DNA from: a virus
IMG/VR virus record: IMGVR_UViG_3300033571_017006
Coordinates: 1 to 24,093 of that record
Length of the DNA stretch: 24,093 nt
Direction: 5' to 3' (one strand)
The notes under the pieces are model-generated. The model was given only the letters and a program-made list of their open reading frames with translations. It made no database searches and was not told the origin of the DNA. A program made the translations under genes and the position numbers. This document shows, one piece after another, positions 2,553 through 5,532 of this stretch. The first letter of the stretch is position 1; the number at the start of each line of letters is the position of its first letter.

Positions 2553-2587
2553 CTTGCCAATACCACGAAATGCCGCACAATAGCATT

Positions 2588-2606: not shown

Positions 2607-2624
2607 GTGATCTTTGACAACTCG
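2607..2624 (+). promoter_or_regulatory. GTGATC / TTGACAAC motif upstream of the RNA array
   Basis: GTGATC (2607-2612) is followed after one base by TTGACAAC (2614-2621) and TCG. Almost the same pair recurs at 7527-7545, before the capsid gene. TTGACA is a perfect -35 box for a housekeeping sigma factor, but no TATAAT-like hexamer sits 16-18 bases downstream. It is a promoter candidate only. Confidence 0.25.
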
Positions 2625-2751
2625 AAAACAGAATCCAGCGGCGGCGTGGAAGGACACGCAAGCATCGCAGCCAGACGCACGGAGACTAACTGCGTTGACC
2701 CGTTAGCAGGTATCAAGCCCTGCCCGCTGGATTCTGTTTTCCAAATTCGAG
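2621..2751 (+). ncRNA. tRNA-like RNA 1 with extended acceptor helix
   Basis: An 18-bp perfect inverted repeat (GAAAACAGAATCCAGCGG, 2624-2641, with 2724-2741) closes a tRNA-like core; an outer CTCG/CGAG pair extends it. The inner seven pairs act as an acceptor stem (CCAGCGG/CCGCTGG). Then come CG, a D-arm (GCGT/ACGC, 2644-2659, loop GGAAGGAC), and near the 3' end a T-arm (GCAGG 2706-2710, CCTGC 2719-2723) joined directly to the acceptor. The T-loop TATCAAGC has 8 bases instead of 7. The anticodon region is not canonical: either CGCAG/CTGCG with a 19-base loop, or ACGCA/TGCGT with an 11-base loop. No CCA is encoded. It is not a normal tRNA; the fold is by hand pairing. Confidence 0.6.
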
Positions 2752-2895
2752 AGTAGAGTTCAGCGGGGTAGCTCAAGGCGAAACGCACTTTGTCACGGTG
2801 CAAAGTAGGTGTCGGTGACACGACATAGTAGAGCGGCATCCTCCCTAAGAAGCCGGTTGCGGGTTCAAGTCCCGCTCCCGCTGAACTCTACTCTC
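2749..2895 (+). ncRNA. tRNA-Arg(CCU)-like RNA 2 with extended acceptor helix
   Basis: A 19-bp perfect inverted repeat (GAGAGTAGAGTTCAGCGGG, 2749-2767, with 2877-2895) surrounds a nearly exact tRNA layout. It has a 7-bp acceptor (2762-2768 with 2876-2882), TA at positions 8-9 and a D-stem GCTC/GAGC (2771-2774, 2831-2834). The anticodon stem is GCATC/GAAGC (2836-2840, 2849-2853), the variable loop is CGGTT, and the T-arm is canonical, GCGGG/CCCGC with loop TTCAAGT. Three features depart from a tRNA. The D-loop is 56 bases with its own small hairpins. The anticodon loop CTCCCTAA has 8 bases. The anticodon stem has one A-A mismatch. Removing one C gives CTCCTAA, an Arg CCU loop. No CCA is encoded. 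Confidence 0.68.
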
Positions 2896-2896
2896 C

Positions 2897-3006
2897 GAAG
2901 GTTGAATTGAGCGAATGGTGTAAAACTTGTGAGAGCATCCAGCGCGGTGCCGCCCTGCGTGGTAACAGTAGGCGGGTTCAAATCCTGCCCGCTCAATTCA
3001 GCTTTT
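2897..3006 (+). ncRNA. tRNA-like RNA 3 with extended acceptor helix
   Basis: An 11-bp perfect repeat (TGAATTGAGCG, 2903-2913, with 2990-3000) extends outward to about 17 bp with G-T pairs (2897-2913 with 2990-3006). Inside it lie an acceptor TGAGCGA/CCGCTCA (2908-2914, 2989-2995; last pair A-C) and a D-stem GGTG/CATC (2917-2920, 2936-2939) with a 15-base loop. The best anticodon-like arm is CGCGG/CTGCG (2943-2947, 2955-2959), and its 7-base loop TGCCGCC lacks the usual T33. The T-arm is GCGGG/CCTGC (2972-2976, 2984-2988) with a canonical TTCAAAT loop. The 12-base linker before the T-arm is long. No CCA is encoded. It starts two bases after RNA 2 ends. Confidence 0.58.
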
Positions 3007-3025
3007 GGGGAGAGCTATTAAATTT

Positions 3026-3280
3026 ATGAGCACGCCAAATAAAAAGCAGCAAGCATGGATGCGGCGAGTTGAGAGGTTGCTTTGCAATCCTCCGCCTGGA
3101 ATTGGTCTTTATACCACGGGGGACCGTTGTTTAAGCGTCTATGATGTGAAAAAGGAGGCCGCAATCAATGCGCGAATGGATCGAGGTCCGGGAACTGACT
3201 TTTGCTGCGCGGTCGATGAACTCGGGGCCGGTTTAGGCATGATTGAGGCGGCTATTTGTATTCACTCGACCTCCGGTTAA
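3026..3280 (+). CDS. conserved small phage protein
   Basis: An 84-residue protein starting MSTPNKKQQAWMRRVERLLC, with a basic helical N-terminus. It continues with NPPPGIGLYTTGDRCLSVYD, probably a short beta-rich segment, and ends AAICIHSTSG. Small proteins with this NKKQ...RVERLL...NPP...Y..GD..LSVYD pattern occur in other tailed phages; their role is unknown. The ATG at 3026 fits that N-terminus. A TTG at 3005 is in frame but would sit inside the 3' arm of RNA 3. A GGGGAG at 3007-3012 is too far (13 bases) for a standard ribosome site. The stop overlaps the next ATG by one base (TAATG). Confidence 0.65.
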   Translation: MSTPNKKQQAWMRRVERLLCNPPPGIGLYTTGDRCLSVYDVKKEAAINARMDRGPGTDFCCAVDELGAGLGMIEAAICIHSTSG

Positions 3281-3684: not shown

Positions 3685-3820
3685 AGATGTCCAACAGGGC
3701 ACGACCGACGCCGCTGCGATGCAGCAACGCAAGAAGGGCATTCGCTCAACCATCCTCGGGCAGGCCGCGCAGCCAAAAACCATTCTCGGGCAGGTTCCTC
3801 AAGGCCAAAGCATGCCATGA
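3620..3820 (+). CDS. small Pro-rich protein upstream of portal
   Basis: A 66-residue protein, MGFMPKPQAPPPPPPAPLPV..., with a proline run and then QQRKKGIRSTILGQ and KTILGQ, a duplicated TILGQ motif. Short proteins with a Pro-rich front and an (R/K)xGxxxTIL repeat are often found directly before the head-tail connector gene in podophages; their function is unknown. The start may be 3620 or 3629 (both ATG, in frame). It overlaps the previous gene by 65 bases and ends in an ATGA overlap with the portal start, which suggests coupled translation. Confidence 0.6.
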   Translation: MGFMPKPQAPPPPPPAPLPVREDVQQGTTDAAAMQQRKKGIRSTILGQAAQPKTILGQVPQGQSMP

Positions 3821-5532
3821 CCGAAGAACCCCAAGACGCCAAGGCCATGTACTCCGCCCGCGACAAAGCGAAGGCGGAAAAGCTGGTCAAGAAGTTCGAG
3901 CGCCTCGAAGGCGACCGCGCGCCCTTTGATGCACTTTGGCAGGAAGTGGCCGAGAAGATCAGCCCTCGCCACGCTGGCATTACGGTTCAGCGCGTCACGC
4001 CAGACAAGGGCGTCGAAGCTCGCATGTTCGACACGACCGGCAGCGATGCCTTGCAGACCATGGCGGCGGGCCTCATGTCTTGGACGACTTCGGCAAGTGA
4101 GGAATGGTTTCAATTCGCCGCGCCGTCGAACCAACGGGCAACCGATGCCGTCAAGCTGTGGACTCAGGAGGCCTCGCACGTCGCGCAGGAACTGCTCGCG
4201 AACTCGAATTACTACACTTCGCGTCATGAAAACCTGCTGACCAAGTGCGCGCACGGCACAACCGCCATGCTGGCCGAAATGCGCAACGGTCGCCTTCGCT
4301 TCGAGTCTTTTCCGATTGGCACCTACTGCATCGAGGAGAACATTTTCGGCGAGGTGACGGGCTTTTTCCGTCGCCACAAGCTCGCGCCTTCCCGCATTGT
4401 CGAACTCATGGGCGAAGAGGCGCTGACCAAAGACATGCGCGAGGCCTGGGCGGTCGAAAAGAACGGCGGAGCGGGCAAGGAGTTCGATGTCCTTCACGCC
4501 ATCTACGAGCGCGACCGCGCCGACATTCCCGAGACGGCGAATCCTGCCGCCTCCATCTTCATGCCCGTGGCGTCGTGCTGGGTCTGCATTGCCTCGAAGC
4601 AAATGCTCAAGGAGTCCGGCTTTGCCTCCATGCCGATCTTTGCGGCCCGTTACCTCAAATGGTCGGCCCTTGGTGCAACCTGTCCTTGGGGCTACTCTCC
4701 GGGCATTCTGGCGTTGCCGGAAGTGAAGCAGAACAACTTCTTGCATGCCATGCTCGACGTGATGGTCGAACGCGCCATCGACCCGCCCATGATGGCACCC
4801 GACGAACTCGAAGGGCAGCTAATCATGACGGCGCGTGGCGTGAACTACGTCAACCAGAACGTCGCTGCGGATCGCTGGCCGCGACCTCTGTATCAGCCTG
4901 CCGACCTCAAGACTGCGCAATGGATCGTCGAGCAAAAGAAGCTCGCCATTCAGACCAAGTTTCACGTCGAGCTTTTCCAAATGTTCGCGAACCTCGACCG
5001 CCAAATGACGGCCCGCGAGGTCGCAGAACGGGCAGGCGAGCGCCTGACCCTCATCACGCCCGCCTTCTCGCGCGATGCCGTCGAGGAAGTGCAACCGATG
5101 ATGCAGCATGTTTTTACGCTGCTCGCCGAATCGGGCCAGCTTCCTCCGCCTCCTGCCGAAGCATTCCTTGGCGGCAATCCTGCCAGCGGTCGCGTTGCCA
5201 TGCCGAAGGTCGTGCTCCAAGGTCGGCTTGCGCTGGCAATCCGCATGCAGCGCAACATGGCCGCAAGCCGGACCCTGGAGGAAACGCTGACCATCGCGCA
5301 GGCCGTTCCCGGCGTGCTGGACAACTACGATTTCGACACCATGGAGCGCGCCAAGGCTCTCGCGAACGGCATCCCTGCCGAATGGCTCAAGCCGGAAGAT
5401 GTCCGCGACGCGCAGCGCCAACAGGCCGCAGAAGCTCAACAGGCCGCAATGGCCGCCGAGATGGCCGAAAAAGCAGCGGGAACCGTCCAGAAGGTCGGAG
5501 GCATCGAACAAGCCCGCGAACTCATTGCATGA
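3817..5532 (+). CDS. head-to-tail connector (portal) protein
   Basis: A 571-residue protein of the T7 gp8-like head-tail connector family. The N-terminal FERLEGDRAPFDALWQEVAE and ISPRHAG segments match the start of that family (R...F...W.E.A..I.P). The motifs FDTTGSDALQTMAAGLMSWTT and WFQFAAPS are typical of its stem/wing region. It forms the dodecameric ring at one vertex, where terminase docks and the tail is later built. The C-terminal 50 residues are a Gln/Ala-rich helix (RQQAAEAQQAAMAAEMAEK), probably the crown. Length is close to the family norm. Both the start and the stop are ATGA overlaps with neighbours. The call is strong from sequence pattern and position after terminase and before scaffold and capsid. 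Confidence 0.9.
   Translation: MTEEPQDAKAMYSARDKAKAEKLVKKFERLEGDRAPFDALWQEVAEKISPRHAGITVQRVTPDKGVEARMFDTTGSDALQTMAAGLMSWTTSASEEWFQFAAPSNQRATDAVKLWTQEASHVAQELLANSNYYTSRHENLLTKCAHGTTAMLAEMRNGRLRFESFPIGTYCIEENIFGEVTGFFRRHKLAPSRIVELMGEEALTKDMREAWAVEKNGGAGKEFDVLHAIYERDRADIPETANPAASIFMPVASCWVCIASKQMLKESGFASMPIFAARYLKWSALGATCPWGYSPGILALPEVKQNNFLHAMLDVMVERAIDPPMMAPDELEGQLIMTARGVNYVNQNVAADRWPRPLYQPADLKTAQWIVEQKKLAIQTKFHVELFQMFANLDRQMTAREVAERAGERLTLITPAFSRDAVEEVQPMMQHVFTLLAESGQLPPPPAEAFLGGNPASGRVAMPKVVLQGRLALAIRMQRNMAASRTLEETLTIAQAVPGVLDNYDFDTMERAKALANGIPAEWLKPEDVRDAQRQQAAEAQQAAMAAEMAEKAAGTVQKVGGIEQARELIA

What the first reader, a model, noticed from the sequence alone, without database searches (positions are those of the whole stretch)
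2621..3006. Three back-to-back tRNA-like RNAs, each locked by a 17-19 bp extended acceptor helix
Between terL and the head genes, a gap without genes is almost filled by three units. Each has a tRNA-like acceptor and T-arm at its 3' end and a D-arm-like element at its 5' side. In each, the bases before the acceptor pair with the bases after it (18 bp perfect, 19 bp perfect, 11 bp perfect plus wobbles). Ordinary tRNAs have unpaired flanks and a free discriminator base. Decaying tRNA genes would not keep perfect pairing outside the acceptor. The cores are non-canonical (8-base T-loop, 56-base D-loop, 8-base or missing anticodon loops). The units therefore look like a selected family of tRNA mimics: possibly decoys or escape variants against anticodon nucleases, RNase III/RNase P processing signals that separate the terminase and head mRNAs, or a new structured RNA. 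The function is inference.
Basis: partly seen in the sequence, partly recalled or inferred. Interest (0 to 1): 0.85.

Follow-up and report, generated by a model that had tools for sequence, protein, structure and literature searches.

The report
Phage tRNA-like scaffolds with swappable cores
Between two packaging genes this virus of bacteria carries three small RNAs built on a tRNA-like frame whose outside is strongly conserved while the inside is swapped from phage to phage; the first belongs to a widespread RNA family, found here in over 70 phage sequences and in several isolated phages, that appears to be unannotated.

Summary
Units at 2624-2741, 2749-2895 and 2891-3012 are closed by 18, 20 and 23 bp helices and fold far better than shuffles (z -5.8, -7.0, -6.0). 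Arms from 22 related units show compensatory changes at 13 of 18 pairs, with 98% of cells paired. A phage with 98% identical TerL has the same three slots with near-identical arms but unrelated interiors, so interiors are exchanged between fixed arms. Arrays with these arms occur in otherwise unrelated metagenomic phages.

Unit 1 led further. Its 3' hairpin (8-nt T-loop UAUCAAGY) defines a family with a tRNA-like shell: acceptor helix, 2 nt, D-arm with loop GAWGGA, a variable 36-208 nt domain, then a T-arm abutting the acceptor. I found it in 72 of 76 viral contigs, in phages of Caulobacter, Alcaligenes, Komagataeibacter, Pseudanabaena and Acidovorax (always unannotated), and in prophage-like regions. 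All five D-stem pairs covary. In about 20 copies the acceptor is extended to 12-24 bp, as here. Rfam has no model for it.

Best explanation: a natural tRNA scaffold, expressed as stable RNA, displaying an exchangeable RNA payload. The payload's role (a counter-defence decoy or antisense RNA) is inference.

The parts
2554..2581 (+). sigma70-like promoter candidate, TTGCCA-16-CACAAT, directly after the terL stop
   Evidence: 1 found, 0.5 expected in shuffles; conserved in L003; other arrays have TTGACG-16-CATTAT at the same relative place
2608..2622 (+). boxA-like element TGATCTTTGACAACT just before unit 1
   Evidence: present upstream of the unit-1 slot in window, L003, L265, L267, L269, L271; 2 hits in 522 kb of phage pieces and 2 in 913 kb of other contigs. 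Matches the E. coli boxA TGCTCTTTAACA at 10 of 12 positions (consensus from memory). Function inferred
2624..2641 (+). unit 1, left arm GAAAACAGAATCCAGCGG
   Evidence: pairs perfectly with 2724-2741; covariation
2644..2659 (+). unit 1, D-arm GCGUG-GAAGGA-CACGC, 2 nt after the arm
   Evidence: D-stem covariation 5/5 pairs; GAWGGA present in 61/72 family members, 57 of them at exactly this position
2660..2705 (+). unit 1, variable domain (46 nt), unrelated between phages
2706..2723 (+). unit 1, T-arm GCAGG-UAUCAAGC-CCUGC (8-nt loop) abutting the 3' arm
   Evidence: exact hairpin in 76 viral contigs; model R1 match 2635-2730, 87.8 bits (this unit is in the seed)
2724..2741 (+). unit 1, right arm
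2749..2768 (+). unit 2, left arm GAGAGTAGAGTTCAGCGGGG
   Evidence: same arm in L003, L041, L049
2762..2883 (+). unit 2, tRNA-like core with 53-nt D-loop insertion and 8-nt anticodon loop
   Evidence: Rfam tRNA 32 bits
2859..2875 (+). unit 2, canonical T-arm GCGGG-UUCAAGU-CCCGC
   Evidence: sequence; T-arm position enriched 8/24 vs 0.23 in shuffles
2876..2895 (+). unit 2, right arm
2891..2913 (+). unit 3, left arm CTCTCCGAAGGTTGAATTGAGCG
   Evidence: arm GAAGGTTGAATTGAGCG shared with L041, L043, L050, L053, L195, L229
2971..2989 (+). unit 3, T-arm GGCGGG-UUCAAAU-CCUGCC
   Evidence: shared with L043, L045 and L053 unit 3
2990..3012 (+). unit 3, right arm
3026..3280 (+). small ORF (84 aa, PHROG 1714, unknown function) inserted together with the units
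   Evidence: absent with the units in L004-L007 and L027

Best explanation
The three units are separate small non-coding RNAs transcribed as an array from their own promoter, apparently under boxA-type antitermination. Each is a tRNA-like scaffold: the acceptor helix (here extended by about 11-13 bp into an rRNA-like leader-trailer helix), a D-arm where present, and a T-arm form a fixed outer shell. The part that would hold the anticodon is a variable payload that phages exchange by recombination between conserved arms. Shown: the structure, the arm covariation, the slot-wise exchange, the family around unit 1, and its occurrence in isolated phages and prophage-like regions. Inferred: the shell gives processing (RNase III in the long arms, or RNase P / tRNase Z / CCA ends in short-arm members) and exonuclease resistance; the payload acts in trans on a fast-evolving host target, most likely as a decoy or antisense RNA in host-defence conflict.
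For: Arms: 13 of 18 pairs with compensatory changes, 98.0% of cells paired, covariation score 0.504 vs 0.199 in shuffles and at most 0.13 when slid. Exchange: window vs L003 arms match 18/18, 18/18, 18/18, 17/18, 17/17 and 21/23, but interiors of 82/124, 111/172 and 76/146 nt align near shuffled level (z 2.5, 0.8, 0.8). L041 vs L229: flanking leader 173/190 and downstream element 220/234 identical, unit-3 interiors unrelated (z -0.8). Shell: among 76 contigs found with the T-hairpin alone, 72 have an acceptor pairing across the unit and 61 have the GAWGGA D-loop near the acceptor (57 at the exact position; 3.6% expected), with D-stem covariation 5/5. Hypervariability: 6 of 1830 pairs of variable domains are similar. 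Isolates. Prophage-like regions. Acceptor + A73 + encoded CCA in 9 members. Transcription-unit signs. rRNA precedent (boxA, leader-trailer helices cut by RNase III): PMC10250234, PMC4807359.
Against: There is no expression, processing or phenotype evidence. Variable domains are barely more stable than shuffled sequence (mean z -0.40), so some may be mere spacers. The longest payload matches to the phage's own genome are 11-13 nt, about what chance gives, so no antisense target was found (its shuffle control failed). Only unit 1 belongs to the 8-nt T-loop family; units 2 and 3 are tRNA-like by T-arm only.
Confidence: 0.5

Rival explanations
1. RNA-processing punctuation: the long helices are RNase III (or RNase P) sites that cut the transcript, and the interiors are neutral spacers.
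For: 18-23 bp helices resemble leader-trailer helices cut by RNase III (PMC10250234); interiors fold like shuffles; arms are more conserved than interiors.
Against: Neutral spacers would drift, not be replaced wholesale while neighbouring bases stay identical. A conserved D-arm and T-arm are not needed for a cut site. Near-identical phages lack the units at the terL junction. Two diverged unit-1 alleles show a paired compensatory change inside the core (positions 119/125).
Confidence: 0.2
2. Counter-defence tRNA decoys specifically for anticodon nucleases or other tRNA-cutting defence toxins.
For: tRNA-like acceptor and T-arm, rapid turnover, presence only in phages and prophage-like regions among the genomes checked.
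Against: Most units have no recognisable anticodon arm. Assignable anticodon loops lack U33 or have 8 nt (L053 CGCAUAG, L045 GAGUCCU, L041 UCGCAAG, window CUCCCUAA). In long-arm members the acceptor end is buried in a helix.
Confidence: 0.2
3. Decayed tRNA genes kept by chance.
For: Unit 2 is recognisably tRNA-derived, and nine of 24 units keep GGTTCRANNCC.
Against: Compensatory arm changes and D-stem covariation in unrelated phages. Record-wide Rfam searches of 14 array-bearing contigs found no other match at E <= 0.001 outside such tRNA-like elements.
Confidence: 0.03
4. DNA-level cassettes: the inverted arms are recombination or transposition sites and the RNA form is incidental.
For: Interiors are exchanged exactly between arms; unit numbers vary 0-3, and L229 looks like a deletion between unit-2 and unit-3 arms; RecT-like genes lie near some copies.
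Against: Each slot keeps its own arm sequence, and arms of different slots differ by compensatory changes, unlike a single transposon end. T-arm and D-arm conservation inside is strand-specific (T motif 9/24 forward, 0 reverse). Short-arm members with CCA ends have no long inverted repeat.
Confidence: 0.12

Closest known systems
Transfer RNA (Rfam RF00005)
   Same: Acceptor helix, 2-nt linker, D-arm, T-arm stacked on the acceptor; some members end in A73-CCA
   Different: Anticodon arm replaced by an unrelated 36-208 nt domain; 8-nt T-loop UAUCAAGY in the unit-1 family; acceptor extended to 12-24 bp in about 20 members; not called by ARAGORN
tmRNA (tRNA-like domain)
   Same: tRNA-like acceptor and T-arm with the anticodon arm replaced by a large insert
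   Different: No Rfam tmRNA match and no ARAGORN tmRNA call; inserts share no sequence between phages
Bacteriophage T4 species 1 / species 2 stable RNAs (rnaC, rnaD)
   Same: Phage-encoded stable RNAs; rnaC has a T-arm GGTTCGAATCC at its 3' side
   Different: No match to the unit-1 covariance model (L075); no known relatives with exchangeable interiors
rRNA operon leader-trailer helices with boxA
   Same: boxA-like element followed by long complementary helices that bracket a stable RNA
   Different: Brackets 60-200 nt RNAs in phages, in tandem, with exchangeable contents
Adenovirus VA RNA
   Same: Short viral non-coding RNA with a terminal stem that blocks host defence (PMC6599070)
   Different: Analogy only; unrelated sequence, host and structure
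GOLLD / ROOL ornate RNAs
   Same: Structured non-coding RNAs of phages (PMC12286853)
   Different: Far larger RNAs that form homo-oligomeric complexes; no Rfam match here

Membership tests
Functional tRNA | 7-nt anticodon loop with U33 in a 5-bp anticodon arm | tested here: not met
   window unit 2 loop has 8 nt; L041, L045, L053 loops lack U33 (sequence reading); unit 1 has no anticodon arm
Functional tRNA | Reaches tRNA model cut-off | tested here: inconclusive
   unit 2: 32 bits over cut-off 29; units 1 and 3 no match; ARAGORN none
Functional tRNA | Free 3' end with discriminator and CCA after a 7-bp acceptor | tested here: not met
   window: pairing continues 11-13 bp past the acceptor; but 9 of 72 family members do encode CCA after the arm
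tmRNA | tmRNA covariance model or ARAGORN tag-peptide gene | tested here: not met
Unit-1 family defined here (8-nt T-loop tRNA-like RNA) | acceptor - 2 nt - D-arm with GAWGGA loop - variable domain - T-arm UAUCAAGY abutting acceptor | tested here: met
   window unit 1, model R1 87.8 bits (in the seed); non-seed hits L281, L384, L378, L344, L377 and others at 45-75 bits
Unit-1 family defined here (8-nt T-loop tRNA-like RNA) | same, for units 2 and 3 | tested here: not met
   no model R1 match in units 2 or 3
T4 species 1/2 RNA | sequence or structure relation | tested here: not met
   no model R1 match in T4 locus L075
rRNA-like transcription unit | boxA upstream of leader-trailer helix | tested here: inconclusive
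   boxA-like string conserved before the unit-1 slot; NusB binding not testable
Any Rfam 15 family | gathering-score match for units 1 and 3 or the neighbouring elements X and Y | tested here: not met
RNase III substrate | cleavage in the arms | not testable with these tools
   needs RNA experiments

The most novel reading that the evidence does not exclude
Bacteriophages use a dedicated, widespread tRNA-like scaffold to present hypervariable RNA payloads: a modular RNA weapon or antidote system in which the shell (D-loop GAWGGA, T-loop UAUCAAGY, covarying acceptor, optionally extended into a leader-trailer helix) is fixed and the payload is swapped between phages in an RNA-level arms race with the host.
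Probability: 0.35. Interest if true: 0.95.

Novelty: categorically new. Interest (0 to 1): 0.86.

Why it matters
It points to an uncatalogued RNA family in phages of several bacterial phyla, including isolated phages with cultivable hosts, in gaps where the annotation shows nothing. The pattern 'conserved tRNA-like shell, exchanged interior' is what one expects of a modular RNA effector, and is the natural counterpart of the engineered tRNA scaffold. It gives a concrete motif and model to test what phage non-coding RNAs do, a question with very few worked examples. It also warns that tRNA finders and gene callers overlook such loci.

Tried and rejected
Decayed tRNAs: rejected by covariation. 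Terminase/head separator: rejected as the general role because close relatives lack it at this site and other phages carry it next to DNA polymerase, tail or HNH genes. TerL of one array phage is nearest (29%) to an Akkermansia phage, so a Verrucomicrobiota host for the array group is only a hint. boxA string as host marker: a Verrucomicrobiota genome (G038) has 8 copies of TGATCTTTGACAACT, but they are an unrelated dispersed repeat without the arms. Antisense targets in the phage's own genome: longest matches 11-13 nt, near chance; the shuffle control of that script was faulty and is not used. Kinship to T4 rnaC/rnaD: not supported. The mir-205 hit across units 1 and 2 is below its cut-off and reflects partial complementarity between neighbouring paralogous arms. 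Literature searches gave no paper describing this RNA; the library holds open-access papers only, so absence is not proof of novelty.

Full report
1. What is in the window. The window is a virus record of 24,093 bases. TerS, TerL (942-2552), a head-tail adaptor (3817-5532), a major head protein and tail proteins are identified by PHROGs. Between terL and the next genes lie three inverted-repeat units: 2624-2741 (18 pairs, all perfect), 2749-2895 (20 pairs), 2891-3012 (23 pairs with wobbles). Each folds far below its dinucleotide shuffles (z -5.75, -6.99, -6.02). Unit 2 is a tRNA by Rfam's cut-off, with a 53-nt insertion in the D-loop. ARAGORN sees nothing.

2. The arms are selected as a helix. 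Using arm patterns I found further copies in metagenomic viral contigs (IR screens). Three arm types recur, in the order u1-u2-u3 where several are present: GAAAACAGAATCCAGCGG, GAGAGTAGAGTTCAGCGG, GAAGGTTGAATTGAGCGG. They look like paralogues of one arm (inference). Across 22 distinct arm pairs, 98.0% of cells are paired, 13 of 18 pairs show changes on both sides, and the covariation score is 0.504 against 0.199 for shuffles and at most 0.13 when partners are slid. Caveat: each sequence counts, and many changes are inherited within an arm type.

3. The interiors are exchanged between fixed arms. L003, a phage whose TerL is 98% identical, has the same three slots in the same place. Its arms match 18/18, 18/18, 18/18, 17/18, 17/17 and 21/23, and the 371 bases before unit 1 match at 342, but the interiors differ in length (82/124, 111/172, 76/146) and align near shuffled level (z 2.5, 0.8, 0.8). 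L041 and L229 share the promoter and leader (173/190) and the downstream element (220/234) but have unrelated unit-3 interiors. Relatives L004-L007 and L027 (96-98% TerL identity) have neither units nor the small ORF here. The window's unit-3 interior reappears in L043, a phage with unrelated tail genes. Neighbouring genes differ from phage to phage: DNA polymerase and helicase, tail and baseplate, HNH.

4. A tRNA-like shell. Nine of 24 units keep GGTTCRANNCC, always on the same strand (0 of 24 on the other). Eight of 24 have a perfect 5-bp hairpin abutting the 3' arm, against 0.23 in shuffles; at the 5' arm 1 of 24 does. Where an anticodon loop can be assigned it lacks U33 or has 8 nt (sequence reading). 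Record-wide tRNA searches of 14 array-bearing records found only three further matches at E <= 0.001, all in such elements.

5. Unit 1 belongs to a widespread family. In slot u1, the window, L267 and L281 share the first 36 and last 36 bases exactly, with unrelated middles of about 46-115 nt. The shared 3' hairpin GCAGG-UAUCAAGY-CCUGC occurs in 76 viral contigs. In 72 of them the bases after it pair with a strand upstream. The D-arm loop GAWGGA, which was not used to find them, is present near the acceptor in 61 of 72 (57 at the exact position; 3.6% expected in shuffles), and all five D-stem pairs show compensatory changes. The acceptor also covaries at 7/7 pairs, but pairing was a selection criterion there. 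Variable domains are 36-208 nt (median 84); 6 of 1830 pairs are detectably similar. Nine members have CCA right after the arm, about 20 have arms of 12-24 bp, and one (L314) contains a complete tRNA-Pro inside the variable domain.

6. Isolated phages and prophage-like regions. The same shell is in Alcaligenes phage vB_Af_QDWS595, Caulobacter phage DMCA, Komagataeibacter phages phiKX1 and phiKX2, Pseudanabaena phage Pan3 and Acidovorax phage AP1, which has a 14-bp arm and an altered T-stem and T-loop; a weaker match is in Roseobacter phage DSS3P8 (25.6 bits). All lie in gaps without annotated genes. A covariance model from 16 units scores the non-seed copies at 45-75 bits. In bacterial genomes it finds copies in three of 18 tested (12 of these 18 were chosen because they held the T-arm string). 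The two regions examined hold terminase, helicase or RecT-like genes. The model does not match units 2 and 3, so only unit 1 is a member by sequence; units 2 and 3 share the design (inference).

7. Transcription unit. A promoter candidate follows the terL stop, and a boxA-like string TGATCTTTGACAACT precedes unit 1 in all u1 arrays inspected. In related phages the array follows a promoter and a leader motif X made of two hairpins whose loops can pair with each other, the loop-loop helix changing in concert (GUGCGAA/UUCGCAC, CUGGUAG/CUACCAG, GUGCAAG/CUUGCAC, GUGGAGC/GCUCCAC). It is followed by a conserved element Y of about 230 nt with 12 double-changed pairs. None of these match Rfam. rRNA operons have boxA and leader-trailer helices cut by RNase III (PMC10250234, PMC4807359); the phage arrays have the same plan (inference).

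8. Mechanism. Most likely the shell is a natural tRNA scaffold that gives processing and stability, and the payload acts in trans. Shown: structure, covariation, exchange, distribution. Inferred: transcription, processing, trans action, and that the target is host defence. Variable domains have little intrinsic stability (mean z -0.40, n = 57), which fits either accessible single-stranded payloads or spacers.

9. Limits. Distant members were sought only with exact T-hairpin or arm strings in viral contigs. E-values from the covariance model are rough. Host of the window phage unknown. No RNA data. Non-open literature was not searched.

Noticed in passing
L041 6779-6875, L053, L045, L195, L049, L222, L223, L225, L229: Leader motif X at the head of related ncRNA arrays: two hairpins with a covarying loop-loop helix, 5'-AAATAGGTTTGC..., directly after a strong promoter; not in Rfam; shape recalls HK022 put antiterminators (from memory).
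   Followed up: partly
L041 7199-7432, L229 6905-7140, L053 5062-5296 and four more: Conserved ~230-nt structured element Y after the arrays, 12 covarying pairs among 60 predicted, no Rfam match.
   Followed up: partly
L314 6825-7010; L377 1497-1659: A complete tRNA-Pro (GGG) gene, and a tRNA-like sequence in Pseudanabaena phage Pan3, nested inside the variable domain of the tRNA-like shell.
   Followed up: partly
L281 8813-8877 minus: Type II hammerhead ribozyme (40 bits) in a phage contig that also carries a unit-1 copy.
   Followed up: no
L265 6100-7700: Long ncRNA cluster: unit 1, then a unit with arms TTGCCTGCCG/CGGCAGGCAA, another tRNA-like element and an intrinsic-terminator-like hairpin.
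   Followed up: partly
L021 2599-2685: tRNA-like element at the terL-portal junction of a distant relative, weak tRNA-Sec match (29.6 bits, below cut-off) with a 9-10 bp acceptor.
   Followed up: no
G038 (L290, L292-L298): Eight dispersed copies of a leader-like repeat containing TGATCTTTGACAACT in a Verrucomicrobiota genome, unrelated to the arms.
   Followed up: partly
L247 19077-19244 (G004): A second, isolated unit-1 copy about 31 kb from the unit-2/unit-3 array of the same phage.
   Followed up: partly
window 2724-2768: Right arm of unit 1 and left arm of unit 2 are partly complementary (the source of a sub-threshold mir-205 match), so neighbouring arms could mispair; divergence between slots may prevent this.
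   Followed up: no
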